DNA from: Liolophura sinensis
Taxonomy: Eukaryota; Mollusca; Polyplacophora; Chitonida; Chitonidae
Reading direction: 5' to 3'
DNA length: 64,000 nucleotides
Assembly: GCF_032854445.1 (NCBI RefSeq)
Contig: NW_027017964.1
Span: forward strand, 1 to 64,000
This document shows, in pieces, positions 9,623-50,155 of this stretch. Both the position numbers and the translations under genes were made by a program. Within the stretch, counting starts at the first letter, position 1, and each line of letters begins with the position of its first letter. The notes under the pieces were generated by a model. It had not been told where the DNA came from, did no database searches, and saw nothing but the letters and a program-made list of their open reading frames with translations.

Positions 9623-9769
9623 CTTTTATCCTTTCACTTTCCTCATAGGTAATGTCATCAGGCAAAACATCATCCCACTCTTTGCCCTTCATCATTATGC
9701 GCTCTTCCCAGATCTTTTGAAGACTTCTAATCTGTCCTATGCGCATATCTTTTTTTAACATCGTCATTC
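9623..9769 (-). CDS. Gene A internal exon E5, possible first half of a death-like fold
   Basis: Read on the minus strand, a 147-nt open segment lies between 'gatcaaatag' (acceptor) and 'gtaaataac' (donor), with phase 1 on both sides. The peptide contains QKIWEERIMMKGKEWDDVLP, a charged helix-like stretch with a Trp. The gene B copy at 40,945-41,088 is one codon shorter and also intact, so the length change preserved the frame. I do not recognise a family. Together with the following exon in gene B it could be a degenerate death-type helical bundle, but that is weak. In gene A the next exons must lie left of the window, beyond the satellite. Confidence 0.7.
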
Positions 9770-9839
9770 CTATTTGATCACAAAAAGGTAATAATTGAAA
9801 GTGACCAGCTTGAAACAGAACTGAGCTGAATTTTGTCTA

Positions 9840-10089
9840 TATTTCATTTATTCATCTGATTGGAATTTTGCGGCGTACTCAAGAATATTTCACTTATACG
9901 ACAAAAGCCAGCATTATTGTGGGAGGAAACTGGGCAGAGGCGGCGAGAAAGCCAGGCCATCTGCATGTTGCTGGCAGGCCTTTCCATGTTTGACCGGAGA
10001 GGAAGCCAGCACGAGCTGGCCTAGAACTCAACAACCATATTGGTAGGAAGCTCCTGGGTCATCATGCTGTGCCTCGGCCACAGAGGCCC
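9840..10089 (-). mobile_element. Near full-length tRNA-headed SINE
   Basis: On the minus strand it begins 'gggcctctgtggccgaggca', a tRNA-like head, followed by a body with 'tgctggcttcctctccgg' and 'cccagtttcctcccac', and a tail 'gaaatattcttgagtac' ending in AAATAAAT-like repeats. The same family occurs more than a dozen times in the window. The copy at 41,160-41,408 is its duplicate in copy B. Confidence 0.9.
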
Positions 10090-10289
10090 AAATCTATAGT
10101 TTATGTCATGTATGTAAGCCTTTACATATTTATGTAAACTATTCTACTGAATCGGATGAAAATAGTTAGTTGATGTGCCTGTACAAACAAGTCTTTCTAA
10201 AAATGAATTAATCAGACATTTTACATACATTAAATAGTGGCTGACACATCATAAAAATGTACGTCCCTACATCTTAACGAAGTACACAC

Positions 10290-11095
10290 ATACCTGTATA
10301 AGTGTAAGTCATTGTAATGTGTGTGCATTTGAGGTGTAAGTCATTGTAATGTGTGTGTGTACTTGAGGTGTAAGTCATTGTAATGTGTGTGTGTACTTGA
10401 GGTGTAAGTCATTGTACTGTGTGTGTACTTGAGGTGTAAGTCACTGTACTGTGGGTGTACTTGAGGTGTAAGTCATTGCAATGTGGGTATGTATGAGGTG
10501 CAAGTCATTGTAAGGTGTGTGAGGTGTAAGTCATTGTAATGTTGGTATATGCAAGGTCTACGTCATTGTAATGTGTGTACTTGAGGTGTAAGTCATTGAG
10601 ATGTGGTGTACATGACAGGTAAGGCATTGTAATGTGTGTGTGTACTTAAGGTGCATGTCTTTGGAATGTGTGTACTTGAGGTGTAAATAATTGCAATGTG
10701 GGTGTACAGGAGGTGTAAGGCATTCTAATGTGTGTGTACTTAAAGTGTAAGTCATTACAATGTGGGTGTACTTGAGGTGCTGGTTATTGTAAGGTGGTGT
10801 AGTTGAGGTGCGTGTCATTGCACTGTGGGTGTACTTGAGGTGTAGGCCATTGCAAAGTAGGTGCAATTGAAGTGTAGGTCAGTGTAATATGGGTGTGTGT
10901 ACTTCAGATGTAGGTCATTGCCAAGTAGGTGTACTTGAGGTGTAGGTCAATGTAATGTGGGTGTGTGCCTTTGAGGTGTAGGTTACTGCAAAGTAAGTGT
11001 ACTTGGGGTGTAGTTTATTGCAAAATAAGTGATCTAGAGGTGTATGATATCTGTATAATGTACTATGTCCATGAGATACAGGTCACTGCAAAGAT
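10290..11095 (-). repeat. 32-bp minisatellite, reverse orientation arm
   Basis: About 25 imperfect copies of 'gtacttgaggtgtaagtcat' plus 'tgtaatgtgtgt'. This is the reverse complement of the arrays that follow to the right. The switch of orientation falls at about 11,095. Spacer lengths vary between about 28 and 38 bp. Confidence 0.92.
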
Positions 11096-11690
11096 CCACA
11101 CCTTACGTACACCTACATTACAAAAGCCTACACCTCAAGTACAACTGCATAATAATGGCCTACATAATAAGTGCACCTACATTAAAATTGCTTACACCTA
11201 TGCCTATACATAAAATGCATCTACAATACAATGGCCTACACCTCAAGTGCACCTACGTTATAGTACCCCACACCTCATGTACATCTACATTACAATGACC
11301 TATGCCTAATGCACCATCGTTACAATGGCCTACACCTCAAGTACAACTACATTACAATGACCAGCACCTCAATTGCACCTACATTACAATACCCTACAGC
11401 TCATGTACACCTATATTACAATGACCAGCACCTCAACTGCACCTGCATTACAATACCCTTCACCTCATGTAGATCTGCATTACAATTCCCTATGCCTCAA
11501 GTGTGCCTACATTACAACAACATAACCTCCTGTACATCTGCATAGCAATCACCTACACCTCAAGCACACCTACATCTCAAGTACACCTACACCTCAAGCA
11601 CGCCTACACCTCAAGCACACCTACATCTCAAGCGCACGTACACCTCAAGCACACCTACACCTCAAGCACACCTACATCTCAAGTACCATG
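11096..11690 (+). repeat. 32-bp minisatellite, forward orientation arm
   Basis: Forward copies of 'cctacacctcaagtacacct' plus 'acattacaatga'. Near 11,570-11,690 it collapses to a short subrepeat of 'acctcaagcacacctac'. With the preceding arm it forms a long imperfect inverted repeat inside an intron of gene A. Confidence 0.9.
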
Positions 11691-11865
11691 GCAATCGCAA
11701 TCAACTTTCAGTACTCCTCAAGTACACTTACAATACCATGACCTGCACCTCATGCTAGCTCCTGCAAAACTCCATCACAGTGATCTACAAGTAATTAGAC
11801 ATCACAGTGATCTACAAGTAATTAGACAAGCATAAACACTGTATGTAATCTGTATAGAGACTAAC

Positions 11866-12021
11866 CTGAAGCACTGTTGTCTACTAAGGGCACATCTTGT
11901 GAAGAGGTTATATCTGGAGCCCTCATGGAGTGACTTTGTGACACCTTCATGGGGTTAACATTTGGGGTCATCTGTGGTGTACTATGTGGCCTCTTGCTGT
12001 AGTTATCTTTCCTTACATCCC
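11866..12021 (-). CDS. Gene A internal exon E4
   Basis: 156-nt exon, phase 1-1, bounded on the minus strand by 'ggttacag' (acceptor) and 'gttagtctc' (donor). The peptide includes HSTPQMTPNVNPMKVSQS and DITSSQDVPLVDNSAS and is polar and Ser/Thr/Pro-rich, typical of a disordered linker. It is one of four copies of the same exon: E3 at 14,115-14,255, and their counterparts at 43,033-43,185 and 45,275-45,415. All four remain open although they differ by 3-bp multiples, which argues for real coding. No known domain is recognised. Confidence 0.75.
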
Positions 12022-12148
12022 CTGTAACCATGCCAACACACAACATATGACACTAATAACTACAATATTTCATTTATAAGAGGTTTATAAAACACTGCCG
12101 ATCCACATTTAGTCAAAATCGTTGAAGAATAAATACGGACACTGGAAT

Positions 12149-12355
12149 CAATTCCACAAAGCCATTTCTGAAGTCAAAATTTAAAATGCGATCTTACAGC
12201 TTATTTTTTGGCTTTAGAAATTAAAATTTTGTCCACCATATCTATGTTTCCTTAAGGCAAATGTGTCTATATTTCAACTTCCAGTACCCAAAACTGGGCA
12301 CTGTGAAGAGGTTTTTAAATTTTGACTTAAGTCACAAACAACTTTGCAGAATCGG
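12149..12355. mobile_element. MITE-like element with long imperfect inverted ends
   Basis: The left end 'caattccacaaagccatttc' followed by 'gaagtcaaaatttaaaa' is mirrored by a right end whose reverse complement begins 'ccgattctgcaaagttgt' and continues 'gacttaagtcaaaattt'. About 207 bp long with no coding capacity. Three more copies lie beside the other E3/E4 exons. Target duplications were not resolved. Confidence 0.6.
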
Positions 12356-12419
12356 CCCTAGAGAAGTGCTCAAAGGGAAGCTCTGTGCAGACTGAAAACT
12401 GAAACTTTCTAATTTAGTA

Positions 12420-13379
12420 ACACCTAAGCACACCTATCTTAAAATGGCATAAACCTCAAGTACAATGACATTTACCTATAGTGCATTTACACCGCAACGG
12501 CCTACACCTCAATTCCCCTACATCACCAAGTACATTACAATAGCAACACCTAAAGTGCACATACATTACAATGGCCTACACCTCAACCATGCCTGCTTAA
12601 CAATAGTCTACACCTGAAGTACATCTACATGCCAATGACCTACACATCAAGTACACCTAAATTACAATACACCTTTCAATAACAATGACATATATGCCTT
12701 ATCTACACTACAATCACCTACATTTCAAGTAAACCTACATTACAATAACCTACACCTCAAGCACACCTACATTACAATACACCTTTAAAATACAATGACA
12801 TACACCACACCTACACTACAATCACCTACATCTCAAGTAAACCTACATTACAATGGCCTACATCTCAAGAAAACATTCAATGCAATGACCTACACCTCAA
12901 GTGCACCTACATTACGATCACCTACACCTCAAGTGCACCTATATTACAATCACCTACACCTCAAGTGCACCTATATTACAATGACCTACACCTCATGTTT
13001 GTTGTCATATGACTGAAAAATTGTTCAGTACAATGTTAAACTATAAGCACACTTATATTACACTGACATACACGTCAAGTACACCTACATTACAATGACC
13101 TACACCTCAAGCACACCTACATTATAATGACCTACACCTCAAGTACACTTATATTACAATGACCTATATTCAACTACATCTGTATTACAATAACCTACAT
13201 TCAACTACACCTATATTGCAATGACTTACAGTTCAAGTACACTTGCATTACACTACACCTCAAGTACACATACATTACAAAGACCTACATCTGAAGTACA
13301 CCTACATTACAATGACCTACATCTCAAGCACACCTACATTACAATGACCTACATCTCAAGTGCACCCACATTACAATGA
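12420..13379 (+). repeat. 32-bp minisatellite, forward, second block
   Basis: About 28 forward copies of the 'cctacacctcaagtacacct' unit in the intron between E3 and E4 of gene A. Its last 12 bases, 'acattacaatga' (13,368-13,379), form one half of the target duplication around the SINE inserted here. Confidence 0.9.
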
Positions 13380-13642
13380 GGGGCCTCTGTGGCTCAGTCG
13401 GTTAGCGCGCTAGCGCAGCGTAGCGACCCAGAAGCCTCTCACCAATGCGGTCGCTGTGAGTTCAAGACCAGCTCATGCTGGCTTCCTCTCCGGCCGTACA
13501 TGAGAAGGTCTGCCAGCAGCCTGCGGATGGTCGTGGGTTTCCGCCGGGCTCTGCCCGGTTTCCACCCACCATAATGCTGGCCAGCGTCGTATAAGTGAAA
13601 TATTCTTGAGTACGGCATAAAACACCAATCAAAAAAAAAAAA
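13380..13642 (+). mobile_element. Full-length tRNA-headed SINE with target duplication
   Basis: The head 'gggcctctgtggctcagtcg' continues with 'gttagcgcg' (box A-like) and 'gctgtgagttcaagacc' (box B-like). The body runs 'ggtttccacccaccataatg' and 'gaaatattcttgagtacggc', ending in a poly-A tract. It is flanked on both sides by 'acattacaatga' (13,368-13,379 and 13,643-13,654). An uninterrupted array would have only one such copy here, so this is a true target duplication. Confidence 0.93.
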
Positions 13643-13740
13643 ACATTACAATGACCTCCACCTCAAGTATACTTACATTACAATTAATGACCTACACCTT
13701 AAGTGCACCTGCACTAGAATGACCTACATCTCAAGTACTA
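13643..13740 (+). repeat. 32-bp minisatellite remnant after the SINE
   Basis: Three further units of the forward 32-bp array, separated from the main block only by the SINE insertion. Confidence 0.85.
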
Positions 13741-14114
13741 TCGCAATCGCAATCAACTCTGAGTACTCCTCAAGTACACTTACAATACCATGACCAGCAC
13801 CTCACACTGGCTCCTGCAAAACTCCATCACAGTGACCTACAAGTAATTATACATTTCACTCGTGCTACACCTCAGCTACACACCCTTCTGGAAAGATACT
13901 TCAAAATTATCAGTCTGACAGTGTTATCAATCTGTGATCAAAGGATCAGTCACTTCAAGAAATTGCTACATTGTAACTATGCAGTACTGTAACTGTAACT
14001 ATGGGGAATCATAACTACCGGTATGCAAACAGTTATGTCACTGTAACTACACTGTACAACCAAAACTGTCACAGACAAGCATAAACAATGTATATAATCT
14101 GTATACAGACTAAC

Positions 14115-14255
14115 CTGCAGCACTGTTGTCTACAAAGGACACATCTTGTGAAGAGGTTATATTTGGAGCACTCATGGAGTGACTTTGTGACGACTTCATG
14201 GGGTTAACATTTGGGGTCATCTGTGGTGTACTCTTGCTGTAGATCCCTACATCCC
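14115..14255 (-). CDS. Gene A internal exon E3
   Basis: 141-nt exon, phase 1-1, with acceptor 'ggttacag' and donor 'gttagtctg' on the minus strand. It is a diverged duplicate of E4: both contain STPQMTPNVNPMK and ITSSQDV. It lies five codons shorter because a segment after the acceptor is missing, in frame. The flanks (array, exon, MITE-like element) are duplicated with it, so the exon arose by an intragenic duplication of about 2 kb. Function unknown; composition suggests a flexible linker. Confidence 0.75.
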
Positions 14256-14368
14256 CTGTAACCATGGTAACACACAACATATGACACTGATCACTACAAT
14301 ATTCAGTTTATAAGAGGTTTATAAAACAATGCCGATTCACATTTAGTCAAAATCATTGGACACTGAAA

Positions 14369-14574
14369 CCAATTCCACAAAGCCATTTCTGAAGTCAAAA
14401 TTTAAAACGCGATCTTACAGCTTATTTTTCGGCTTTAGAAATTAAAATTTTGTTCACTTCATCTATGTTTTCTTAAGGCAAATGTGTCTATACTTCAACT
14501 TCCAGTGCCCAAAACTGGGCACTGTGAAGAGGTTTTTAAATTTTGATTTAAGTCAAGAACAGGTTTGCAGAATC
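14369..14574. mobile_element. MITE-like element, second copy
   Basis: Same inverted-end structure as 12,149-12,355, in the same position relative to the duplicated exon E3. It was therefore copied with the exon and did not insert independently. Confidence 0.6.
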
Positions 14575-14639
14575 AGACGTAGTGAAGTGCTAAAGGGAAG
14601 CTCTGTGCACATTGAAAACTTAAATTTTCTGATTTAGTA

Positions 14640-15600
14640 TTTCATCATTTGTTTTCACATGGACGTGGCATTGTTACACCTTTTTGTTGCCTATGTACAT
14701 TTTCCGTAATTAGAGGAAGTCATTCATTTTGATTATGTTTAGTTTTACATAGTAGTTCCCCTTGTTTCTGACAGAAGTAAAATCTCAACGGCATTCATGT
14801 TCATCAATCCTTTGTGTTGACTAAATGGTACAGTTCGATAGATAAATTAATGACATTAACTGAAATTATGCACAGATGTTTTTTACACAGTGGTGCAAAG
14901 AATATTTGGGCCAAGAGGTAAGCTATGATAACATTATTTGAATGTGGTATTCAGTGACGGAACTGAACCCTTACCAGACACCGAATATCTAACTCTCTAG
15001 ACGTTCTTGTTTAAAATAAGTTGTCTGTAAGGTCGCCCAGCGTCTGGCTATGAATGGAAGTTGCTAATGATGTGATGTTTGCTCTAGACATATACATCAC
15101 GTTTTATTTATTGGTGGAGCTTTCAGGTTTGTTGTTGTATACTGATTTGAGTGCTGTAACACCATACCACTACTTCTTGTATTCGAAATGACGTTGGTTA
15201 TAGCCACTTTATCGCAGCCGTTCACTATGTGCTATGAACAGTGTCCAGATGGTGTGAGAAGCCACATTACACATATTAGCCAGCAATTTAGCAATATGTA
15301 ATATGACGTTGGCGTCTTTTATTGGTACAGGTTTTATCCTATAGTTTGAATTAGGTTATTGTCAGAAATAGGGACACCGTGTAATGCGAAACTATAGTAG
15401 CTGTTAGCTAAGTTACAAGCTGTATGTTGATAGTAACAATGGCTTTGTTAGGATAACTGTTTATATACACGAAGCGGTATTTTGTGGTATGTTTTTGTGT
15501 TATCTCAGTTATCAGTAATCATTGTTCATGCATTTCTTTGTACTGTTAAATGTATTACTTTGTGTTCTATGTACCAGTAGTTAGTAGTATGTTGTGCTAA
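14640..15600. other. Intron of gene A, no feature recognised
   Basis: AT-rich single-copy-looking sequence between E3 and the 2.5-kb duplication. The matching stretch in copy B (45,795-46,756) contains a 101-codon open frame that is broken by a TAG here, so it is not taken as coding. Confidence 0.6.
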
Positions 15601-16203
15601 CATGTATAATTTCACCCAATTTGAGTGTGTTATAACTCGCTTAAGATATTAGCTGGTAAACCACGCTGTTTAACCACCTTGTTATGACATACATGTCGTA
15701 CGTAAATTGAACGCAGATTTCATCCAACTATTTTGTGGCACTAGTTCTGCTGTGGTTGTTTAATTGCGCATTCATATACTTGTTACACACCCAATGACAG
15801 TGAAATAACGACAGGATTGCTACGGTACGGTACTATATGAAGTCTTTGTTTCTGTTGTCAGGGGCGCTACTGTGTTTAATAACACATACCTCTGGCTAAT
15901 CATCATTGTACGGTAAAATACAGCTGCATGAAACAAACTTTACAAGTGTTCGTGAATTCCATCCTCAAGTTAGTGATCACATCCTACATGTACCTTCTGG
16001 CAGTTTTTATAAAGAGCTTCTCCAGTTCAAAGATGTGTACGTTTTAAAGGCAGGATTGATTAATAAGGATCCACAGTAGTATGAATGACTTCATAAATTG
16101 TAAAAAAAGAACTGCACTGTATTCATTAAAACAGTTGTTGTAAGTCTGGGATGATAGTATGGAAACAAAAGTCTTCTGTCGTTTCCAATTTGCCAGGTAA
16201 GTG

Positions 16204-16231
16204 TGACGTCATAAGAGAACACCTGACGTCA
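16204..16231. promoter_or_regulatory. Two CRE-like palindromes, 20 bp apart
   Basis: The palindrome TGACGTCA is present at 16,204-16,211 and 16,224-16,231 in an intron of gene A. The copy at 47,360-47,387 keeps both. The copy at 18,687-18,714 keeps the first and has CGACGTCA for the second. TGACGTCA is the classical ATF/CREB site. Use as an enhancer is inference only. Confidence 0.4.
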
Positions 16232-16651
16232 CCCATTGCTGATGTTTCAACTTTATCCACAAATGACGCCATACTTTTAAACACAGATGACTGCTTTTAA
16301 ATACAATTGTATCTGTCTGATTCGTTGTCAGAAGAATTTTACAGTAAATGAAGATGATTTCATATAGCATCACTCTTCCTGATATGGTTTAAATCGTGTT
16401 ATTCTTTATTAATCCTATTGAGCCCTGGTGTTAGCTCTGCTCTGTAGGACATCCTTCATGTCATTTTAATATTTCCCCCTCATTTATCTTGGGATTGAAG
16501 TAGCACTTCATGAATAACTTGTCACGATATTTTGTCATTGTTCACCTATCTGACTAGCAGTATTCAATGTCAGTTCAATATGCATGGACACCTAGGCCAG
16601 TACGTGACACGTATTACACCGGCACACCTTACTGGAGGAAGACATGTCTAG

Positions 16652-16793
16652 GCTATTTATTTATTTACCTGTATTTATTTGATTGGAGTATTTCCCTTAT
16701 ACAGTGGCAACCAGCATTATGGTGGGAGCAAACCGAGCAGAGTGCTTGGTAACAAAAACCTAGCACACTAATCACTATGCCATGGAGGTCCCC
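16652..16793 (-). mobile_element. SINE-like element with tRNA-like head
   Basis: On the minus strand it starts 'ggggacctccatggcatagt', continues 'cccaccataatgctggttgc' and ends in an AAATAAAT tail. It is shorter than the main family, with part of the body missing. Copies are at 19,135-19,276 and 47,809-47,949. Confidence 0.75.
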
Positions 16794-16989
16794 TGATGGG
16801 CTTTATGTTAAAGGTTTATGTGTACCTACATACAGACTAGAACCAGGCTTATTTACATGTACAAAATACCATCTGAACTGAGAGAGAAATCTTAATAGTT
16901 TCTGCTGAAGAAATGCTTGGTGACTCTGGTCACTATAACCAGCCTAATTAACCATAAGTTACACAAATGTAAATATATAAAGTACTTAC

Positions 16990-17130
16990 CCATAGAGGTA
17001 TTTTGGCCGGGTGAGAAGTGTTGGGGAATAACAGAGCGCTGTGTGTTGTCAATGCAAGAAATCGGGTGCCTTAATGAAGATCCACTATGAAAAGCTTCGG
17101 CAGAGTTATTTGCCCCTGAACCTGCAACTC
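16990..17130 (-). CDS. Gene A internal exon E2b
   Basis: 141-nt exon, phase 1-1, with minus-strand acceptor 'acattgttgcag' and donor 'gtaagtact', a near-consensus donor. The peptide includes VAGSGANNSAEAFHSGSS and VIPQHFSPGQNTSM and is small-residue and polar-rich. The gene B copy (48,152-48,292) has the same length, and seven nucleotide differences change five residues. In gene A this exon is present twice because of the 2.5-kb duplication. No domain is recognised. Confidence 0.75.
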
Positions 17131-17156
17131 CTGCAACAATGTATTGACACATCTAC

Positions 17157-17294
17157 ATTTGACTGGAGTTTTACACCGTCTCAGGAATGTTTCACTTTAA
17201 TATACGACAGTGGTCAGCATTATGGTGGGAGAAAACGATGGGCAGAGCCCGAGGGAAACCCACAACCATCCGCAGGTTGCTGGCAAAACCTCCC
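17157..17294 (-). mobile_element. SINE fragment, central part
   Basis: On the minus strand it reads 'gccagcaacctgcggatg' to 'cccaccataatgctgacc' and 'aaacattcctgag', i.e. body and tail of the main SINE family without the head. Duplicated at 19,617-19,755 and 48,319-48,456. Confidence 0.8.
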
Positions 17295-17617
17295 AATGAA
17301 ACTCACAAAAGAGATGATATAATAATAGGTAGATATATACTTGTGTTTCCATGGTGATGTATGTGTATGCAATTAAATGTAGGTCTACTGAGATTTCAGT
17401 CATACAGGATGATGGTTTTCATATAAAAACTTAGATACTCTATTGAGTTAGTTTACTGGGTAAAACTGTTCCTTGAAAAATACATCATGTGTCCCTACAG
17501 AAAACTCTTTCAATATATGTAGATAACAGTAGAATCATCATTAGGAATTACACTTTCTGAATATAGCAGAGAATTCTAGTGCTGAAAATTGGCTGAGATA
17601 TACACTGTATGCTGCAT

Positions 17618-17705
17618 GGTTTTGAACCGTTGACCTCAGAGTCAGGCACAAAATTGTCAACCCTACATGTCAACTGTTTAGACCACTTGACCAACAGGCT
17701 GCCCA
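17618..17705 (-). mobile_element. tRNA-like SINE head, Leu/Ser type
   Basis: The minus strand shows 'tggtcaagtggtctaaac' (box A-like), an extra variable-arm-like stretch, and 'gaggtcaacggttcaaaacc' (box B-like). Acceptor-stem pairing is poor and no CCA context is visible, so it is a pseudogene or SINE head and not a working tRNA. Copies at 20,080-20,166 and 48,783-48,868. Confidence 0.5.
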
Positions 17706-17750
17706 GAAAAATAGAAGGAAGTAGATGTATGTAGACTTTACGGCTAACAT

Positions 17751-17878
17751 GCATTACCCCCCTGATGATCAGAAATGAGACAGCTCCCTCAGTTCAATTC
17801 AAATGACATCAAAACCAGTCTGATATATTCACCTGAGAGAAATGTGTCATTTCTGATCATCAGAGAGGTAATTAATGC
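17751..17878. mobile_element. Foldback element with 17-bp perfect arms
   Basis: 'ctgatgatcagaaatga' (17,762-17,778) is perfectly inverted at 17,847-17,863, and the symmetry extends imperfectly outward through 'gcattacc' and 'ggtaat'. The whole 128 bp would form a long hairpin. Copies at 20,213-20,340 and 48,913-49,040. Confidence 0.6.
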
Positions 17879-18686
17879 AGCTTCGCCATCAAGTCTACCT
17901 GTCAACTACTATTTTTCACATAGTTGAAAAACCAGCAGTAAATTTCAGTGTCACTTAACTGGTTATTGACAGGCATTGCTTGTGGCTACTTGTTTACCTG
18001 ACTATGACTCATGATCTGACTCACGAACTTTTCACTTAAACAATATTGGCCAGTTCAAAGAGGAAACTGAAACGTCTGGAATAACATGTATAATTTCACC
18101 CAATTTGAATGTGTTATAACTCGCTTAAGATACTAGCTGGTAAACCGCGCTGTTTAACCGCCTTGGTATGACACACACGTCGTACGTAAATTGAACGCAG
18201 ATTTCATCCAACTATTTTGTGGCACTAGTTCTGCTGTGGTTGTTTAATTGCGCATTCATATACTTGTTACACACCCAATGATAGTGAAATAACGACAGGA
18301 TTGCTACGGTACGGTACTATATGAAGTCTTTGTTTCTGTTGTCAGGGGTGCTACTGTGTTTAATAACACATACCTCTGGCTAATCATCATTGTACGGTAA
18401 AATACTGCTGCATAAAACAAATTTTACAAGTGTTCTTGATTCCATCCTCAAGTTAGTGATCACATCCTACATGTACCTTCTGGCAGTTTTTATAAAGAGC
18501 TTCTCCAGTTCAAGGATGTGTACGTTTTAAAGGCAGGATTGATTAATAAGGATCCACAGTAGTATGAATGACTTCATAAATTGTAAAAAAAGAACTGCAC
18601 TGTATTCATTAAAACAGTTGTTGTAAGTCTGGGATGATAGTATGGAAACAAAAGTCTTCTGTCGTTTCCAATTTGCCAGGTACGTG

Positions 18687-18714
18687 TGACGTCATATGAG
18701 AACACCCGACGTCA
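18687..18714. promoter_or_regulatory. CRE-like pair, one site degraded
   Basis: Duplicate of 16,204-16,231. The first TGACGTCA is intact and the second reads CGACGTCA. Confidence 0.3.
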
Positions 18715-19134
18715 CCCATTGCTGATGTTTCTACTATATCCACAAATGACGCCATACTTTCAAACACAGATGAGTGCTTTTAAATACAATTGTATCTGTC
18801 TGCTTCATTGTCAGAAGAATTTTACAGTAAATGAAGATGATTTCATATAGCATCACTCTTCCTGATATGGTTTAAATCGTGTTATTCTTTATTAATCCTA
18901 TTGAGCCCTGGTGTTAGCGCTGCTCTGTAGGACATCCTTCATGCCATTTTAATATTTCCCCCTCATTTATCTTGGGATTGAAGTAGCACTTCATGAATAA
19001 CTTGTCACGATATTTTGTCCTTGTTCACCTATCTGACTAGCAGTATTCAATGTCAGTTCAATATGCATGGACACCTAGGCCAGTACGTGACACGTATTAC
19101 ACTGGCACACCTTACTGGAGGAAGACATGTCTAG

Positions 19135-19276
19135 GCTATTTATTTATTTACCTGTATTTATTTGATTGGAGTATTTCCCTTATACAGTGGCAACCAGCAT
19201 TATGGTGGGAGCAAACCGAGCAGAGTGCTTGGTAACAAAAACCTAGCACACTAATCACTATGCCATGGAGGTCCCC
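19135..19276 (-). mobile_element. SINE-like element, duplicate of 16,652-16,793
   Basis: Near-identical copy carried by the 2.5-kb tandem duplication. Confidence 0.75.
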
Positions 19277-19472
19277 TGATGGGCTTTATGTTAAAGGTTT
19301 ATGTGTACCTACATACAGACTAGAACCAGGCTTATTTACATGTACAAAATACCATCTGAACTGAGAGAGAAATCTTAATAGTTTCTGCTGAAGAAATGCT
19401 TGGTGACTCTGGTCACTATAACCAGCCTAATTAACCATAAGTTACACAAATGTACATATATAAAGTACTTAC

Positions 19473-19586
19473 CCATAGAGGTATTTTGGCCGGGTGAGAA
19501 GTGCTGTGTGTTGTCAATGCAAGAAATCGAGTGCCTTAATGAAGATCCACTATGAAAAGCTTCGGCAGAGTTATTTGCCCCTGATC
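19473..19586 (-). CDS. Gene A internal exon E2a, shortened
   Basis: Duplicate of E2b with an 18-bp in-frame deletion (VIPQ region) and a 5-bp deletion that removes the original acceptor. The next AG on the minus strand, 'gagttgcag' followed by 'gatcagg', lies exactly nine bases into the ancestral exon and keeps phase 1. The exon would then be 114 nt, phase 1-1, three codons shorter at the start and six in the middle. The donor 'gtaagtact' is unchanged. Whether this acceptor is used needs transcripts, but frame is kept despite two independent lesions. Confidence 0.6.
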
Positions 19587-19616
19587 CTGCAACTCACAAT
19601 GTATTGACACATCTAC

Positions 19617-20166: not shown

Positions 20167-20212
20167 AAAAATAGAAGGAAATTGACATGTATGTAGACTT
20201 TACGGCTAACAT

Positions 20213-21100: not shown

Positions 21101-21533
21101 CTTGCTGTGAAAGCTGGTTCAAATGTGACTGTGGTTTTGGTGGGTCATCCAGCTCTTGCTGCTCTCTGTGGTTACCCTGGTTACCAGGATTGTCACTGTT
21201 ATTAAAAATATTCTCATAGTCCTTCTTAAATCTTTGAGGAACACGATCATAAATTTGTTTTGCTAAAATTTGTACATCGCAATCATGCACCACTTTCACG
21301 AACTTTATAAAGGCATCCGGGTACAATCGTAACAGCACGTTCACCAGTTCTCGTGTCCCTTCAATGTTACCTTCTTGTATACATCTTCGTTCAATACGTT
21401 GGCTATCCTCAATAGGAATTGCATTCCTCATGTAAGGTAGAATTTTCCTGGGCGCAATTTTGGGCTGAATTTCAGCCTGCATGTCACGCAGTATAATTTC
21501 ATGATAATGTAGCCCATCATGAACCATCTTCAT
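21101..21533 (-). CDS. Gene A CARD exon
   Basis: 433-nt exon on the minus strand. The acceptor 'tcatttttcag' lies directly before ATG, and the donor is 'gtaataatt', ending in phase 1. Only phase 0 is open at the acceptor, so ATG is either the start codon after a 5' UTR intron or is reached from a phase-0 exon. Residues about 8-98 match the CARD pattern of six amphipathic helices: an RDMQAEI helix, 'DSQRIERRC', 'TRELVNVLLRLYPDAFIKFV' and 'QILAKQIYDRVP'. Residues 100-144 are a polar Asn/Gln linker. CARDs act by homotypic stacking in apoptosis and innate immune signalling; the partner here is unknown. Compared with the gene B exon, 19 base changes replace 15 residues, several at sites where gene B and exon C agree (D to N, G to V, A to T, A to V, R to P), so this copy looks derived. 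Confidence 0.85.
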
Positions 21534-22440: not shown

Positions 22441-22469
22441 CCTACAATGTGACTGTAAGGACAGGCCTG

Positions 22470-26771: not shown

Positions 26772-27189
26772 CCATTGAGGGTTCACCCCTCCTCGATGGC
26801 TGTTCCTCCACGCCCCTTGGGTCCGATGCTTCATCGGTGAGCTCTGCAGATTCATCTTGAATTCCCGGGAAAATATGCGAGAATTTCCCCTTAAATCTGC
26901 TCGGTACACGTCCATACAGTTCTTGCGCTAATATCTGTCCACTGGAACTAGCTTTTACCACGGCCTCTACAAACCTGACAAAGGTGTCTGGGTATGACCT
27001 CAGGAGCACATCCACGAGTTTCCTGGCGCCCTCGATGTCGCCATCCTGTAGGCAGCTCTGTGTGATGCGTTGACGGTCCATGTCTGATATCGAGTCTCCC
27101 ATATGGTCCAGGACAGCTCTAGGATTGATCTTCTTTTGGATTTCATATCGATTATTCTTTATTATACTTTCGTGAAAATGTCGACTCAT
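26772..27189 (-). CDS. CARD exon C, third family member
   Basis: On the minus strand an ATG at 27,189 opens 139 codons plus one base to the donor 'gtgagagc' (phase 1). A possible acceptor, 'attccctttaag', lies six bases before the ATG. Residues about 6-100 are CARD-like and align with genes A and B: 'EIQKKINPRAVLDHM', 'DIEGARKLVDVLLRSYPDTF', 'SSGQILAQELYGRVPSRFKG'. The tail is acidic and polar (SAELTDEASDPRG). The exon is not in the duplicated block. Its phase-1 donor fits the family's small exons but cannot join the gene A CARD exon, which is open only in phase 0. It may be an alternative first coding exon of gene A, the start of a separate gene, or an orphan. Confidence 0.8.
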
Positions 27190-27345
27190 TTTGCCCTTAA
27201 AGGGAATAAAAAAAAATTCTTTTTTTAAACTGATGTTTACAAGACGGCATCTCATATTGTTATAGTGGGTTAATCAATGGGTAAAGCTACGGTGGAAGAA
27301 AGAAACAACCTCACATCACCAGGTATGTGATACAACGCCTGGCGT

Positions 27346-34489: not shown

Positions 34490-35430
34490 GCATCTTAATG
34501 AATGCTGGCACCATCATGAACCCTGGCACCTTAATCACCCTGGGCACCATCATTATCCCAGGCAGCATCATCACCCTGGGCACCATCATCATCCCAGGCA
34601 GCATCATCACCATGGGCACCATCATGAACCCTGGCACCTTAATCACCCTGGGCACCATCATCATCCCAGGCAGCATCATCACCCTGGGCACCATCATGAA
34701 CCCTGGCACCTTAATCACCCTGGGCACCATCATTATCCCAGGCAGCATCATCACCCTGGGCACCATCATTATCCCAGGCAGCATCATCACCCTGGGCACC
34801 ATCATCATCCCAGGCAGCATCATCACCCTGGGCACCATCATGAACCCTGGCACCTTAATCACCCTGGGCACCATCATTATCCCAGGCAGCATCATCACCC
34901 TGGGCACCATCATTATCCCAGACAGCATCATCACCCTGGGCACCATCATCATCCCAGGCAGCATCATCACCCTTGGCACCATCATAATCCCAGGCAGCAT
35001 CATCACCCTGGGCACCATCATGAACCCTGGCACCTTAATCACCCTGGGCACCATCATCATCCCAGGCAGCATCATCACCCTGGGCACTATCATGAACCCT
35101 GGCACCTTAATCACCCTGGGCACCACCATGAGCCCTGGCACCTTAATCACCCTGGGCACCATCATTATCCCAGGCAGCATCATCACCCTTGGCACCATCA
35201 TTATCCCAGGCGCCATCCTCACCATGGGCACCATCCTCACCCTGGGCACCAGGCTCACCCTGGGAACGATCCTCACCCTGGGCATCATCATCACCCTGGG
35301 AACGATCCTCACCCTGGGCACCATCATGAACCCTGGCACCTTCATCATCTCTGGCACGATCCTCACCGTGGGCACCATCATCACCCTGGGCACCATCATC
35401 ACCCTGGGCACCTTCATTACCACTGCTATC
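34490..35430 (-). repeat. 36-bp coding and 3' UTR minisatellite of gene B
   Basis: About 26 units of 36 bp in two main types. On the minus strand one type encodes WDDDGAQGDDAA. The other reads RVHDGAQGD followed by an in-frame TAA. The part from 35,430 to 35,143 is the end of the coding region, and the rest lies past the first stop. Because 36 is a multiple of three, both strands show long open frames; the plus-strand one is discounted. Confidence 0.9.
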
Positions 35431-37070
35431 CTCGTCATCAGCACTACAATCAGCAGCACTGTCTTCATCCTCACTACATGCACCGTCATCATTGCCACTG
35501 TACCTGCCGGTAACCCTTGTGCCTCCCACTACATCTTCACTCTGAATGACTCCTGTCTCATCTGTGGTGTCCACTGACTCTGAACATGAGTCATATAGTC
35601 CTATTTTAGGCTGATACACATACAGTTCACGCCTTACCCCAAACCCACGACTATCCTGGCTCTTATCTTCTGAGGACAAAGATTCCGCACTTGAAGTCAG
35701 ATTTCCTGAAGCCTCTTTAGGTAAGTTTCCATTACCTTTGTGATCTTGACTGGACAAATTGTTAAGTATGGTAGATCTAGACGCAGAACTGTGTGTGGAT
35801 TGGAAATTGAAAGCAGTGGTAGCTTCACAGTCTGCAGTGGTGGAAGTTTGTGCATCTCTTGGTGATAAACCTGAGGCAGCGGTATTTGTAACTTCAGAGC
35901 TGGCATTAGTAGAAGTTTGTGCATCTCCTGGTGGTAAACTGGAAGCAGTAGTCTCTACAAGGTCACCACTGGGAGGCAAAGGTAGGGCAGTACCTACAAG
36001 TCCATTTCTGCTGGCATTAGAACTGTGCCCAGTGGCTGTACACATCCCAATTCTTTCAGACTCTTCTTGTATGTTCCTGAAACCTAATTCCTCTTCAGCA
36101 CGTCGGTCCTCCTGGAGTCTTTGGGCCTCCACATCAGGACACTTCTCTGCCTGAAATCCTTCTGGATCCTCCACAGAGGGAATTGGTAATGCTTTTGTCT
36201 CACTGTGACACGATGCTGATATGTCTTCTTGCAGCCTTTCTGCTTCCAGGCCAGGACCTTTCTCAGCTTGATGACCATGAGTGTCGCTTTCTGCTTGGAC
36301 ACTGCTCTTCTCTGCCCTTACAGATGCCCCTCCTGAGGGCAATGGGTTGGATTCCTGACCACTGATAGGACTTTGTGCAGAGATATCCTCCCTAAAGTAT
36401 TCAGCATCAATCCCTGGACTTTTCTCAGCTTGATGACCATGAGTGTCGCTTTCTGCTTGGACACTGCTCTTCTCTGCCCTTACAGATGCCCCTCCTGAGG
36501 GCAATGGCTTGGATTCCTGACCACTGATAGGACTTTGTGCAGAGATATCCTCCCTAATGTATTCAGCATCAATCCCTGGACTTTTCTCAGCCTGTTGTCC
36601 ATCAGTGTCACTCTGTGCTTGGACACCTCTAGGTAAGCTGCCTTGGCCTTCACTAGATTGACTGTGGTCACCACGACTGCTCAACTCAGGGTTCGTGCAA
36701 ACTACTCTGTGAAGAGGAAAACTCTCAATTTGACTACTCGGCCGCTGGTCTCGTGCAGCAGATCCAGTGGGTCTACTAGCTCTGCTCCCCCTTTGCCATG
36801 TTTGCTCTGAACTGCTAGGAGTATCCTCTGTTTTCAAACAACTAGCCATTGCATTATTTGGTCGTAATGGAGGCTGCAAAACATTGATGATTCGATCTGG
36901 CGTCTGACTGCATGGTGTTTCATCTTGGTCACTGCCAGGCTGCTGAGAACTTCCATCTGTTTCCAGTGATTGGCCTGGATTTACCTGAAATTCTTCAGGT
37001 GGCTGATCGAATACTGGAGTTTCTGGCTTGTTTATAATTTTGGGCTCCTCATCAATTCCACCAACAGCCC
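35143..37070 (-). CDS. Gene B terminal exon, Ser-rich with acidic Gly-Asp tail
   Basis: 1,928 nt from the acceptor 'aattattttacag' (phase 1) to TAA at 35,143-35,145, about 642 codons. Order: an acidic start (GIDEEPKIINKPETPVFDQP), a Ser/Arg-rich part, three 54-residue repeats with core 'GHQAEKSPGIDAEYFREDIS' (162-bp period, 36,269 to about 36,600), a module 'VEDPEGFQAEKCPDVEAQRL', a Ser/Thr-rich part, 'GVRRELYVYQPKIGLYDSCS', then an acidic run ending in GAQGDD/GAHGED repeats. There is no membrane segment or signal peptide. The sequence predicts a disordered tail. The modules recur in gene D, which supports real coding. The acidic Gly-x-x rhythm is only loosely collagen-like and lacks prolines. 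Confidence 0.85.
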
Positions 37071-37600: not shown

Positions 37601-37753
37601 CCGGTGAGCTAGGAGGATTCCATCCCACAACACTGCAAACTTCACCGTACACCTCGTCACTAGCGATGTCCTTAACCATTTCCATAAAACTCCCCAAGGT
37701 CCATCCATAACTTACCAGCAGGTTAAAAAATTCTCTGAAGGGATTCTTGCTTG
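37601..37753 (-). CDS. Gene B exon E6, death-fold-like
   Basis: 153-nt exon, phase 1-1, minus-strand acceptor 'catgttatttcag' and donor 'gtaggttat'. The core 'FREFFNLLVSYGWTLGSFME' continues 'MVKDIASDEVYGEVCSVVGW'. The pattern (two hydrophobic helices, GWTLG turn, then Leu/Val helix) recalls helices 4-6 of a death domain (LL..W...g.Tv..L...L). The preceding exon E5 with its Trp could supply the first half. I put this at low certainty; it may be an unrelated helical module. The paralogous exon of gene A should lie left of the window. Confidence 0.7.
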
Positions 37754-38401: not shown

Positions 38402-40712
38402 GTATAACAGTGACATGCCCAGAACTCACACATTCCCATCTGTATCACATTGACATGACCAGATGTGCCACATTCCCATCTGTATAACAGTGACGTGCCC
38501 AAAACTGCCACATTCCCATCTGTATAACAGTGACGTTCGCAGAACTGCCACATTCCCATCTGTATAACAGTGACATGACCAGAACTGCCACATTTCCATC
38601 TGTAAAACAGTGACATGACAAGAACTGCTACATTCCCATCTGCACAACAGTGACATGCGCAGAATTGCCACATTCCCATCTGTATCACAGTGACGTGCCC
38701 AGAACTGCTACATTCCCATTTGTATAACAGTGACATGCCCAGAATTGTCACATTCCCATCTCTATAACAGTTACGTGCCCAAAACTGCCACATTTCCATC
38801 TGTACAACAGTAACATGACCAGAACTGCCACATTCCCATCTGTATAACAGTGACGTGCAGAACTGCCACATTCCCATCTGTATAACAGTGACGTGTCCAG
38901 AACTGCCACATTTCCATTTGTATAACAGTGACATGCAGAATTGCCACATTTCCATTTGTATAACAGTGACATGCCCAGAACTGCCACATTCCCATCTGTA
39001 TAACAGTGACATGACCAGAACTGCTACATTTCCATCTGTATAACAGTGACGTGCAGAACTGCCACATTTCCATTTGTATAACAGTGACATGCCCAGAACT
39101 GCCACATTCCCATCTGTATAACAGTGACATGACCAGAACTGCCACATTTCCATCTGTATAACAGTGACGTGCAGAACTGCCACATTTCCATTTGTATAAC
39201 AGTGACATGCCCAGAATTGCCACATTCCCATCTGTATAACAGTGACATGACCAGAACTGCTACATTCCCATCCGTGTAACAGTGACGTGACCAGAACTGC
39301 CACATTCCCATCTGTATAACAGTGACATGCGAAGAACTGCCACATTTCCATCTGCATAACAGTGACATGACCAGAACTGCCACATTCCCATCTGTATAAC
39401 AGTGACGTGCCCAGAACTGCCACATTCCTATCTGCATAACAGTGATGTGCCCAGAACTGCCACATTCCCATCTGTATAACAGTGACGTACCCAGAACTGC
39501 CACATTCCCATCTGTATAACAGCTATGTACCCAGAACTGCCACATTCCTATCTGTATAACAGTGATGTGCCCAGGACTGCCACAATCCAATCTGTATAGC
39601 AGTGACGTGCCCAGAACTGCCACATTCCCATCTGTATAACAGTGACGTACCCAGAACTGCCACATTCCCATCCGCATAACAGTGACATGCCCAGAACTGC
39701 CACATTCCCATCCGTATAACAGTGACATGCACAGAACTGCCACATTCCCATCTGTATAACAGTGACATGCCCAGAACTGCCACATTCCCATCTGTAGAAC
39801 AGTGACGTGACCAGAAGTGCCACATTCCCATCTGTATAACAGTGACATGACCAGAACTGCCACATTCCCATCTGTATAACAGTGACATGCCCAGAAGTGC
39901 CACATTCCCATCTGTATAACAGTGACGTGCAGAACTCCCACATTCCCATCTGTACAACAGTAACATGCACAGAACTGTCACATTCCCATCTGCATAACAG
40001 TGACATGCCCAGAACTGTCACATTCCCATCTGCATAACAGTGACATGTCCAGAACTGTCACATTCCCATCTGTATAACAGTGACATGAGCAGAACTGCCA
40101 CATTCCCATCTGTATAACAGGGACATGCCCAGAACTGTCACATTCCCATCTGTATAACAGTGACATGCGCAGAATTGCCACTTCCCATCCGTATAACAGC
40201 TACGTGCCCAGAACTGCCACAATCCCACCTGTATAACAGTGATGTGCCCAGAGCTGCCACATTCCCATCTGTATAACATTGATGTACCCAGAACTGCCAC
40301 ATTCCCATCTGTATAACAGTGACGTGTCCAGAACTGCCACATTCCCATCTGTATAACAGTGATGTGCCCAGAACTGCCACATTCCCATCTGTATAACAGC
40401 TACGTGCCCAGAACTGCCACAATCTCATCTGTATAACAGTGATGTGCCCAGAACTGCCACATTCCCATCTGTATAACAGTGACGTACCCAGAACTGCCAC
40501 ATTCCCATCTGTATAACAGCTACGTGCCCAGAACTGCCACATTCCCATCTGTATAACAGTGATGTGCCCAGAACTGCCACATTCCCATCTGTATAATAGT
40601 GACGTGCCCAGAACTGCCACATTCCCATCTGTAAAACAGTGATGTGCCCAGAACTGCCACATTTCCATCTGTATAACACTGATGTGTGCAGAACCGCCAC
40701 ATTCCCATCTGT
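38402..40712. repeat. 40-bp satellite array inside an intron of gene B
   Basis: About 58 monomers of the same satellite as 1-9,388. It lies between exons E6 and E5 and ends in the same terminal monomer ('aaccgccacattcccatctg' then 'ttttta') as the left array. It is far shorter than the left copy, so the two introns have expanded very differently. Confidence 0.96.
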
Positions 40713-40944: not shown

Positions 40945-41088
40945 CATTTATCTTTACACTATCATCGTAGGTAATGTCATCAGGCAAAACATCATCCCAC
41001 TCTTTGCCCTTCATCATTATGCGCTCTTCCCAGATCTTTTGAAGACGTCTAATCTGTCCCATGCGCAAGTCTTTTAACCTCGTCATTC
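40945..41088 (-). CDS. Gene B internal exon E5
   Basis: 144-nt exon, phase 1-1, acceptor 'gatcaaatag', donor 'gtaaataac'. The peptide begins MTRLKDLRMGQIRRLQKIWE and ends in an acidic stretch (LPDDITYDDSV). It is one codon shorter than the gene A exon, with frame kept. Charged and helix-prone; no family recognised with confidence. Confidence 0.72.
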
Positions 41089-43032: not shown

Positions 43033-43185
43033 CTGAAGCACTGTTGTCTACTAAGGACACATCTTGTGAAGAGGTTATATCTGGAGCACTCATGCGACTC
43101 TGTGACACCTTCATGGGGTTAACATTTGAGGTCATCTGTGGTGTACTATGTGGCCTCTTCCTGTAGTTATCTTTCCCTACATCCC
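43033..43185 (-). CDS. Gene B internal exon E4
   Basis: 153-nt exon, phase 1-1, acceptor 'ggttacag', donor 'gttagtctc'. It differs from the gene A exon by a 3-bp in-frame deletion near SQSRMSAP and by several residue changes (R to G, S to R, P to S). Polar, Ser/Thr/Pro-rich linker. Confidence 0.75.
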
Positions 43186-45274: not shown

Positions 45275-45415
45275 CTGAAGCACTGTTGTCTACTAAGGAC
45301 ACATCTTGTGAGGAGGTTATATTTGGAGCACTCATGGAGTGACTTTGTGACGACTTCATGGGGTTAACATTTGGGGTCATCTGTGGTGCAATCTTGCTGT
45401 AGATCCCTACATCCC
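45275..45415 (-). CDS. Gene B internal exon E3
   Basis: 141-nt exon, phase 1-1, acceptor 'ggttacag', donor 'gttagtctg'. The peptide has IAPQMTPNVNPMKSSQSHSM and ITSSQDVSLVDNSAS. Same length as the gene A counterpart and open throughout. Confidence 0.75.
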
Positions 45416-48151: not shown

Positions 48152-48292
48152 CCATAGAGGTATTTTGGCCAGGTGAGAAGTGTTGGGGAATAGCAGAGCA
48201 CTGTGTGTTGTCAATGCAAGAATTCGAGTGCCTTAATGAAGATCCAGTATGAAAAGCTTCGGCAGAGTTATTTGCCCCTGATCCTGCAACTC
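48152..48292 (-). CDS. Gene B internal exon E2
   Basis: 141-nt exon, phase 1-1, acceptor 'acattgttgcag', donor 'gtaagtact'. The peptide has VAGSGANNSAEAFHTGSS and AIPQHFSPGQNTSM. It is a single copy in gene B, present twice in gene A. Confidence 0.75.
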
Positions 48293-48318
48293 CTGCAACA
48301 ATGTATTGACACATCTAC

Positions 48319-48456
48319 ATTTGACTGGAGTTTTACACCATCTCAGGAATGTTTCACTTTAATATACGACAGTGGTCAGCATTATGGTGGGAGAAAACGA
48401 TGGGCAGAGCCCGAGGGAAACCCACAACCATCCGCAGGTTGCTGGCAAAACCTCCC
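48319..48456 (-). mobile_element. SINE fragment, copy B
   Basis: Counterpart of 17,157-17,294. Confidence 0.8.
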
Positions 48457-48782
48457 AATAAAACTCACAAAAGAGATGATATAATAATATGTAGATATAT
48501 ACTTGTGTTTCCATGGTGATGTATGTGTATGCAATTAAATGTAGGTCTACTGAGATTTCAGTCATACAGGATGATGGTTTTCATATAAAAACTTAGATAC
48601 TCTATCCAGTTAGTTTACTGGGTAAAACTGTTCCTTGAAAAATACATCACGTGTCCCTACAGAAAACTCTTTCAATATATGTAGATAACAGTAGAATCAT
48701 CATTAGGAATTACACTTTCTGAATATAGCAGAGAATTCTAGTGCTGAAAATTGGCTGAGACATACACTGTATGCTGCATGGT

Positions 48783-48868
48783 TTTGAACCGTTGACCTCA
48801 GAGTCAGGCACAAAATTGTCAACCATACATGTCAACTGTTTAGACCACTTGACCAACAGGCTGCCCAG
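48783..48868 (-). mobile_element. tRNA-like SINE head, copy B
   Basis: Counterpart of 17,618-17,705. Confidence 0.5.
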
Positions 48869-48912
48869 AAAAATAGAAGGAAGTAGATGTATGTAGACTT
48901 TACGGCTAACAT

Positions 48913-49040
48913 GCATTACCCCCCTGATGATCAGAAATGAGACAGCTCCCTCAGTTCAATTCAAATGACATCAAAACCAGTCTGATATATTCACCTGAGA
49001 GAAATGTGTCATTTCTGATCATCAGAGAGTTAATTAATGC
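48913..49040. mobile_element. Foldback element, copy B
   Basis: Counterpart of 17,751-17,878 with both 17-bp arms intact. Confidence 0.6.
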
Positions 49041-49722
49041 AGCTTCGTCATCAAGTCTACCTGTCAACTACTATTTTTCACATAGTTGAAAAACCAGCTG
49101 TAAATTTCAGTGTCACTTAACTGGTTATTCACAGGCATTGCTTGTGGCTACTTGTTTACCTGACCATGACTCATGATCTGACTCAAGAACTTTTCACTTA
49201 AACAATATTGGCCAGTTCAAAGAGGAAACTGAAACGTCTGGAATAAACCACCAACCTTTGGCAAGTTTAAACTGGTGAACTTTCTCATGTGTCACTCAAG
49301 TCGTTTAATTATATTGGTGAAAGGCTAGCAGTTTATGGCACAACTTCATGTATGACCACACAAGAGAGTGCTGTTCATTGCACTCATTTCTCTGGTCACA
49401 TAGTGACCGAAAAAGAGTGACCCACCATACTGCTTTTAAAGATGTCATTTAAGTAGAAAGGCTCTACGATATTTATTTCTTTCTTTGGTTTCTGTTTCAC
49501 ATCATACTCAGGAATTTTTCATTTACAATGTACACAATGGTGGTTGTGTTTCATGATAGAGAAAACCACAGACCTTTGGCAAGTAACTGAGAAACTTTCC
49601 CACAGATTGTGATGATTGCAGATATGCACACCATACTGATGGAAGACAAGTGGCCATTCATGAGCCTTAGATTGCCCAAACTTGTGTTGATCACGTTCAC
49701 GCACGTCCTTGTTAATTATTAC

Positions 49723-50155
49723 CTTGCTGTGAAAGCTGGTTCAAATGTGACTGTGGTTTTGGTGGGTCATCCAGCTCTTGCTGCTCTCTGTGGTTACCCT
49801 GGTTACCAGGATTGTCACTGTTATTAAAAATATTCTCATAGTCCTTCTTAAATCTTTGAGGAACACGATCATAAATTTGTTTTGCTAAAATTTGTCCATC
49901 GCAATCATACACCGCTTTCACGAACTTTATAAAGGCATCCGGGTACAATCGTAACAGCACGTTCACCAGTTCTCGTGCCCCTTCAATGTCACCTTCTTGT
50001 TTACATCTTCGTTCAATACGCTGGCTATCCTCAATAGGAATTGCGTCCCTCATCTGAGATAGAATTTGCATGGGCGCAATTTTGCGCTGAATTTCAGCCT
50101 GCATGTCACGCAGTATACGTTCATGATAATGTAGCCCATCACGAGCCATCTTCAT
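49723..50155 (-). CDS. Gene B CARD exon (start of coding region)
   Basis: 433 nt, acceptor 'tcatttttcag' immediately before ATG, donor 'gtaataatt' in phase 1. Codons about 8-98 form a CARD: 'ERILRDMQAEIQRKI' (helix 1 with the usual kink), 'APMQILSQM', 'EDSQRIERRC', 'DIEGARELVNVLLRLYPDAF', 'KAVYDCDGQILAKQIYDRVP'. A polar Asn/Gln/Pro linker follows to codon 144. At sites where it differs from gene A it usually agrees with exon C, so it looks like the conserved copy. It joins in phase to E2, E3, E4, E5, E6 and the terminal exon to give 1,030 codons. The likely role is CARD-CARD adaptor signalling inside the cell; no signal peptide or membrane span is visible. Upstream non-coding exons were not found. 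Confidence 0.87.

What the first reader, a model, noticed from the sequence alone, without database searches (positions are those of the whole stretch)
9623..50155. Undescribed CARD gene family built from phase-1 cassette exons
Eleven small exons plus a long terminal exon on the minus strand all have GT-AG borders and, apart from the CARD exon acceptor, intron phase 1 at every junction. In gene B the seven exons sum to 3,093 nt, exactly 1,031 codons including the stop. Between copies, exon lengths differ only by multiples of three. Any small exon can be skipped, doubled or swapped without breaking the frame, and doubling has happened (E2, E3/E4). The combination of CARD, linker cassettes, a death-like exon and an acidic repeat tail matches no family I can name.
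Basis: partly seen in the sequence, partly recalled or inferred. Interest (0 to 1): 0.87.

Follow-up and report, generated by a model that had tools for sequence, protein, structure and literature searches.

The report
RIG-I-type CARD genes in a chiton
A chiton (a marine mollusc) carries a small cluster of genes that join an antiviral-type signalling domain to modular linker exons and a long acidic tail; they look like unusual relatives of the molluscan antiviral adaptor MAVS without its membrane anchor.

Summary
Gene B (minus strand, 50155-35143) rebuilds exactly as described: seven exons, GT-AG borders, six phase-1 introns, 3,093 nt. Truncated copy A has the matching exons, with E2 doubled; E3 and E4 are paralogous in both genes.

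The CARD belongs to a named class, PF16739 (RIG-I/MAVS type; E 4.9e-14), and fits the chiton's own RIG-I-like receptor CARDs better than its other CARDs. The 'death-like' label for E5+E6 fails a profile test against 20 Death domains of the same genome. Oyster MAVS is already described as CARD + Death + transmembrane tail (PMC5557890, passages), so the layout has a precedent, but no transmembrane segment is found here.

The source is the Liolophura sinensis assembly. A third gene, D, begins beyond the window, keeps CARD, E5 and E6 at dN/dS about 0.28 from B, lacks E2-E4, and by my model ends in Cys-Val-Ile-Met, a possible prenylation signal.

Most likely these are helicase-less CARD adaptors or regulators of RIG-I-like receptor signalling: a new variant of the molluscan MAVS kind. 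No transcript evidence was available.

The parts
49723..50155 (-). Gene B exon 1: start codon and RIG-I/MAVS-type CARD, phase-1 donor
48152..48292 (-). Gene B exon 2: linker cassette, phase 1-1
45275..45415 (-). Gene B exon 3: linker cassette, phase 1-1, paralogue of exon 4
43033..43185 (-). Gene B exon 4: linker cassette, phase 1-1, paralogue of exon 3
40945..41088 (-). Gene B exon 5: first half of a conserved domain of unknown type, phase 1-1
37601..37753 (-). Gene B exon 6: second half of that domain, predicted three helices, phase 1-1
35143..37070 (-). Gene B terminal exon 7: 54-residue repeats, Ser/Thr-rich part and acidic repeat tail; stop inside a 36-bp minisatellite
21101..21533 (-). 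Gene A exon 1: CARD
19473..19586 (-). Gene A exon 2a: duplicate of exon 2, shortened, with displaced acceptor
16990..17130 (-). Gene A exon 2b
14115..14255 (-). Gene A exon 3
11866..12021 (-). Gene A exon 4
9623..9769 (-). Gene A exon 5; the rest of gene A is not seen (contig begins at base 1)
26773..27192 (-). Gene C CARD exon with phase-1 donor; no E5/E6 partner found downstream
58692..60728 (-). Gene D terminal exon (CARD at C25:83219-82826, outside the window): 30-bp repeats, acidic stretch, last four residues CVIM

Best explanation
A tandem family of helicase-less CARD proteins that act in the RIG-I-like receptor (RLR) pathway as MAVS-like adaptors or scaffolds. The CARDs of an activated RLR would nucleate the family CARD, which would assemble into a CARD oligomer; the second helical domain (E5+E6) would bring in a partner; the long, repeat-rich acidic tail would act as a scaffold. 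Unlike vertebrate and oyster MAVS, no transmembrane tail is seen; gene D may instead be anchored by a lipid on its C-terminal CVIM. Phase-1 linker cassettes between CARD and E5 vary the spacer between copies. Shown: CARD class, gene structure, conservation of CARD and E5/E6 between B and D, and CARD-bearing RLR loci and IRF exons in the same genome. Inferred: splicing, RLR binding, oligomerisation, partner recruitment, anchoring.
For: PF16739 match. PDB sequence relatives at E below 1e-3 are all RIG-I. Predicted CARD bundle; RIG-I, APAF-1, MDA5 and MAVS CARDs among the best folds. Family CARDs against the genome's four RLR CARDs: probability 97, E 4.6e-11, versus E 4.4e-7 for 18 other CARDs. 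Of 10 PF16739 places, 4 lie upstream of RIG-I C-terminal domains and 5 belong to this family. B-D dN/dS about 0.28. IRF and STING matches in the genome. Oyster MAVS described as CARD then Death then TM (PMC5557890, passages).
Against: No TM segment and no excess of tail-anchor-like ORFs downstream, although the TM was needed for oyster MAVS to self-associate and to bind the RIG-I CARDs (PMC5557890, passages). No excess of TRAF or pLxIS-like motifs. E5+E6 not recognised as Death. MAVS does not appear among the PDB sequence matches. By fold, APAF-1 ties with RIG-I. The B tail shows no clear constraint between alleles (dN/dS 0.89, few changes). A/B exons show none (1.32). No RNA evidence.
Confidence: 0.45

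Rival explanations
1. Soluble decoys or regulators: the family CARD caps or competes for RLR (or MAVS) CARD assembly and damps signalling, as CARD-only proteins do (recalled).
For: No TM, no excess of TRAF or IRF-recruiting motifs, a CARD-only copy C, copy-number difference between contigs C25 and C33.
Against: Large conserved extra parts (E5+E6, long tail) are not needed for a cap; no other non-helicase PF16739 gene that could be the real adaptor was listed, though a diverged one could be missed.
Confidence: 0.25
2. True MAVS orthologues whose transmembrane exon lies downstream or in an alternative isoform that I did not recognise.
For: Layout CARD then a second domain then a tail as in oyster MAVS (PMC5557890, passages); gene D's phase-0 donor shows that the tail can be split.
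Against: Tail-anchor-like ORFs after B and D are at chance number (3 against 2.78 expected; 6 against 4.89). The long open frames of B and D run to their own stops.
Confidence: 0.1
3. CARD adaptors of another pathway (apoptosome, caspase or NLR), the RIG-I likeness being only class resemblance.
For: APAF-1 CARD is the best structural match by VIA-align Z (14.8 against 14.5 for RIG-I).
Against: Sequence and profile comparisons favour RIG-I and the chiton RLR CARDs.
Confidence: 0.1
4. A decaying cluster: segmental copies of an old RLR-type CARD gene, mostly pseudogenes whose open frames are still young.
For: A is cut by the contig end and shows no constraint (dN/dS 1.32). A second, frame-broken tail-like stretch lies inside gene D. 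The B stop lies in a minisatellite.
Against: B and D are old paralogues (dS about 1.7-1.9), each with a full open frame, and dN/dS is about 0.28 over CARD and E5+E6.
Confidence: 0.05

Closest known systems
Oyster CgMAVS (KY630189; PMC5557890, passages seen, sequence not seen)
   Same: N-terminal CARD, a second domain after it, no helicase
   Different: CgMAVS is described with a Death domain and a C-terminal TM; here E5+E6 is not recognised as Death and no TM is found. Here there are tandem copies, phase-1 linker cassettes and acidic repeat tails.
Vertebrate MAVS (CARD, proline-rich, TM; from the introduction of PMC5557890)
   Same: PF16739-class CARD, helicase-less
   Different: No TM; MAVS is not among the PDB sequence matches, though its CARD fold matches
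RIG-I-like receptors
   Same: CARD class; closest by sequence and profile
   Different: No RIG-I C-terminal domain match on C25 or C33; gene models end in repeat tails
Two Aplysia genes with RIG-I/MAVS-type CARD but no helicase (LOC101858480, LOC101846979; PMC9334734, passages)
   Same: Helicase-less PF16739-type CARD genes in a mollusc
RAIDD/CRADD-like CARD + Death adaptors (name recalled)
   Same: CARD plus a further domain; two such CARD-Death loci in this genome, on C7 and C1
   Different: There the second domain is a clear PF00531 Death domain and the CARD matches PF00619

Membership tests
RIG-I/MAVS-class CARD (PF16739) | Profile match above the curated cut-off | tested here: met
   A 50.6, B 55.0, C 50.0, D 43.7 bits against a cut-off of 28.2
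MAVS | N-terminal CARD of the RLR/MAVS class without helicase | tested here: met
MAVS | C-terminal transmembrane anchor | tested here: not met
   Highest 19-residue Kyte-Doolittle mean 1.04 in B and 0.89 in D; downstream tail-anchor-like ORFs at chance number. A TM exon in another isoform is not excluded.
MAVS | TRAF-binding and pLxIS-type motifs (patterns recalled) | tested here: inconclusive
   No excess over shuffles in either tail; such motifs are short and degenerate
MAVS | CARD-CARD binding to RLRs and signalling to IRF/NF-kB | not testable with these tools
   Needs experiment
Molluscan (oyster-type) MAVS | Death domain after the CARD | tested here: inconclusive
   E5+E6: no Pfam match; score 12.5 against 20 Death domains, shuffle 95% point 14.2 and maximum 24.3, six true Death domains 28-74; E6 is predicted as three helices.
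RIG-I-like receptors | DExD/H helicase and C-terminal regulatory domain after the CARDs | tested here: not met
   None of the 7 PF11648 matches lies on C25 or C33; models B and D run to stops without a helicase. The helicase itself was not searched.
Prenylated (CaaX) proteins | C-terminal CaaX motif (rule recalled) | tested here: inconclusive
   Gene D model ends CVIM; chance about 0.002, or 8e-5 by a stricter pattern, from tail composition. B, its C33 allele and the frame-broken tail stretch do not end so.

The most novel reading that the evidence does not exclude
In chitons the RLR adaptor has lost the tail anchor that defines MAVS and has split into tandem paralogues whose spacing is set by interchangeable phase-1 exons and whose tails are encoded by minisatellites, one copy (D) being re-anchored to membranes by prenylation. 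That would be an antiviral CARD adaptor with a different membrane address.
Probability: 0.15. Interest if true: 0.7.

Novelty: new variant of a known kind. Interest (0 to 1): 0.47.

Why it matters
MAVS was reported missing in Aplysia (PMC9334734, passages) and present with a TM in oyster (PMC5557890, passages). A helicase-less RIG-I-class CARD family in a chiton gives a concrete candidate for how RIG-I-like receptors signal in molluscs where a standard MAVS is not found, and lets one test whether the membrane anchor is indispensable.

Tried and rejected
Death-domain identity of E5+E6: no Pfam match, only unrelated PDB matches at E 0.09 and above, profile score inside shuffles. Second CARD: the score is raised (24.6; highest of 150 shuffles 15.2) when four family CARDs are in the target profile of 26, but only 15.4 (shuffle 95% point 13.3, maximum 16.3) without them, and 12.6 against the four RLR CARDs; not claimed. 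The E6 model finds no fold match.

Collagen, streptococcal-adhesin and PMG matches of the tails are below the curated cut-offs and come from repeats. TRAF/pLxIS motifs: no excess. Hidden TM exon: chance number. Cassettes elsewhere in the genome: none listed, 7 of 7 matches in genes A and B. Positive selection between A and B: dN/dS 1.32 does not differ from 1 by N versus S (Fisher p 0.59); the excess over introns (p 1e-4) may be relaxed constraint in A.

A first BLAST of the C33 loci found nothing because I named files that did not exist; it was repeated properly. The first-stage suggestion of mapping RNA-seq could not be run.

Papers: passages only of PMC5557890, PMC8998645, PMC9334734 and PMC11068029; the correction PMC12441733 was read whole; all others were seen only in search listings. 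One search (chiton, MAVS, RIG-I-like receptor, genome; 10 of 2,617 papers listed) listed none that holds 'chiton', and (MAVS, prenylation, CaaX, CARD; 10 of 17 listed) shows no title on prenylated MAVS, one on palmitoylated MAVS (PMC11348129, not read). These are listings, not proof of absence.
Full report
What was checked. The window is bases 1-64000 of contig C25 (323,235 bases) of a 609,464,459-base, 632-contig assembly. The published Liolophura assembly has 609,495,693 bases in 632 scaffolds, with scaffolds of 96,433,062, 60,359,117, 58,388,612 and 37,343,639 bases; contigs C1, C7, C8 and C9 here have exactly these lengths. C6 and the total differ slightly from the printed figures. The authors later corrected the species from L. 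japonica to L. sinensis. It is therefore a chiton.

Gene structure. Gene A is a copy, 95.7 and 96.1% identical over the two main gene blocks, seen only as far as exon 5 because the contig begins there. It carries E2 twice, since 2.5 kb are tandemly duplicated at 97.1%. E3 and E4 are related to each other in both genes, so that doubling is older than the A/B split. A third gene, D, begins outside the window at C25:83219 and ends in it at 58692: five exons, 2,796 nt in frame, intron phases 1, 1, 1, 0. Its last join is my inference: a short exon at 72660-72578 with a phase-0 donor fits the phase-0 acceptor at 60728, while a frame-broken stretch of tail-like sequence follows the short exon directly. 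D goes straight from the CARD exon to E5; a genome search found E2/E3 sequence only in A and B (7 of 7 matches). That is the best evidence that phase-1 cassettes were added or lost between CARD and E5. A fourth CARD exon, C (27192-26773), has a phase-1 donor but no E5/E6 was found after it, in the window or in the 24 kb of its allelic contig fetched below it.

Are the exons coding? B and D are old paralogues. Over the aligned CARD exon (116 codons) dN is 0.47 and dS 1.66; over E5+E6 (92 codons) dN is 0.51 and dS 1.85. The ratios near 0.28 point to purifying selection, although dS is saturated. Other comparisons do not show constraint: B and its C33 allele differ over the tail exon by about 10 nonsynonymous and 3 synonymous changes (ratio 0.89), and A and B by 41 and 8 over 333 codons (1.32); C and its allele give 0.55 on 9 changes. 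Between A and B nonsynonymous sites diverge faster than three intron stretches (Fisher p 1e-4), and of 15 differing CARD residues 7 are changes in A, 1 in B and 7 cannot be polarised. A may be degenerating. No RNA evidence was available, so splicing is inferred from sequence.

The CARD. Pfam places it in CARD_2, PF16739. By sequence the PDB relatives at E below 1e-3 are all RIG-I (best E 1e-7; with a family profile 9.5e-9). The predicted structure is a helical bundle with pLDDT of 85-96 in the ten-residue blocks of residues 11-110. Foldseek and VIA-align return RIG-I, APAF-1, MDA5 and MAVS CARDs. Foldseek E-values start at 3e-3 and APAF-1 (Z 14.8) ties with RIG-I (14.5), so the fold says CARD but not which one. 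Profile comparison within this genome favours the RLR CARDs (E 4.6e-11, against 4.4e-7 for 18 other CARDs).

Genome context. The PF16739 search scored 18 candidates and listed 10 places. Four are exons 11-16 kb upstream of RIG-I C-terminal domain matches, three of them in tandem on C6, so the chiton has CARD-bearing RLR loci; three further C-terminal domain matches have no PF16739 exon listed near them. One place, on C7, sits beside a Death exon and looks RAIDD-like (name recalled). The other five are A, B, C, D and an allele of C on contig C33. C33 also carries the B tail; the main alignment blocks are 94.6-97.3% identical and end close to where the A duplication block begins. So the A block is either polymorphic or an assembly matter. 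IRF and STING matches are present.

The second domain. E5+E6 is conserved in D (33 of 99 columns identical). It has no Pfam match of meaning and no PDB match below E 0.09. Against 20 Death domains from this genome it scores 12.5, below the 95% point of 200 shuffles (14.2; maximum 24.3), while six true Death domains tested the same way score 28-74. Against CARDs the score is 24.6 when family CARDs are in the target and 15.4 when they are not, where shuffles reach 16.3. E6 alone is predicted as three helices (pLDDT 84.8) with no fold match. It may be half of a death-fold bundle, but which kind is open.

The tails. B ends in an acidic stretch that stops inside a 36-bp minisatellite; the C33 allele ends the same way. 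D has about 26 copies of a 30-bp repeat, some 200 very acidic residues and the last four residues CVIM, a CaaX-like end (rule recalled). From the composition of that tail such an end has a chance of about 0.002; B, its allele and the frame-broken stretch were also looked at and do not end so. Neither protein has a TM segment, and tail-anchor-like ORFs downstream are at chance number.

Comparison. Oyster MAVS is described as CARD, then Death, then TM; its TM was needed for self-association and for binding the RIG-I CARDs (PMC5557890, passages). Aplysia has two genes with RIG-I/MAVS-type CARD but no helicase, and its authors report no MAVS (PMC9334734, passages). Lophotrochozoan RLRs are known for N-terminal domain grafting (PMC8998645, passages). 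The chiton family fits this setting. It fails the TM criterion of MAVS and so is not filed as MAVS; it most likely works like a MAVS-type adaptor, or regulates one.

Verdict. The claim of a nameless family is too strong, since the CARD class and the general layout have relatives. What is new is the tandem, TM-less, cassette-spaced form with one possibly lipid-anchored member. Interest 0.47.

Noticed in passing
   Followed up: yes
L001:7640-8488, minus strand (C25:71640-72488): A frame-broken stretch resembling the family tail with acidic EHDHDEDTVDDDNYD repeats, inside gene D's last intron.
   Followed up: partly
window 9618-25791 against contig C33: Contig C33 carries alleles of the B tail and of CARD C, but its match ends where the gene A duplication block begins: a copy-number difference between haplotypes or an assembly join.
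   Followed up: partly
window 4-9388 and 38402-40712: The same 40-bp minisatellite unit fills the left contig end and the intron between E5 and E6 of gene B; it gives many long spurious ORFs.
   Followed up: no
window 30380-31190, 22479-24391, 51067-52729, 55939-57057: Further minisatellites (units of 58, 80, 80 and 30 bp); the cluster is rich in tandem repeats, inside exons too.
   Followed up: no
C6:33313540-33371073: Three tandem RIG-I-like receptor loci, each with a PF16739 exon and a RIG-I C-terminal domain match.
   Followed up: partly
C7:41544095-41545177 and C1:33317965-33318725: Two loci with a CARD exon followed by a Death exon, RAIDD-like by eye.
   Followed up: partly
window 21101-21533 against 49723-50155: The A and B CARD exons differ by 17 nonsynonymous and 2 synonymous changes; of the polarisable residue changes 7 of 8 are on A.
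   Followed up: partly
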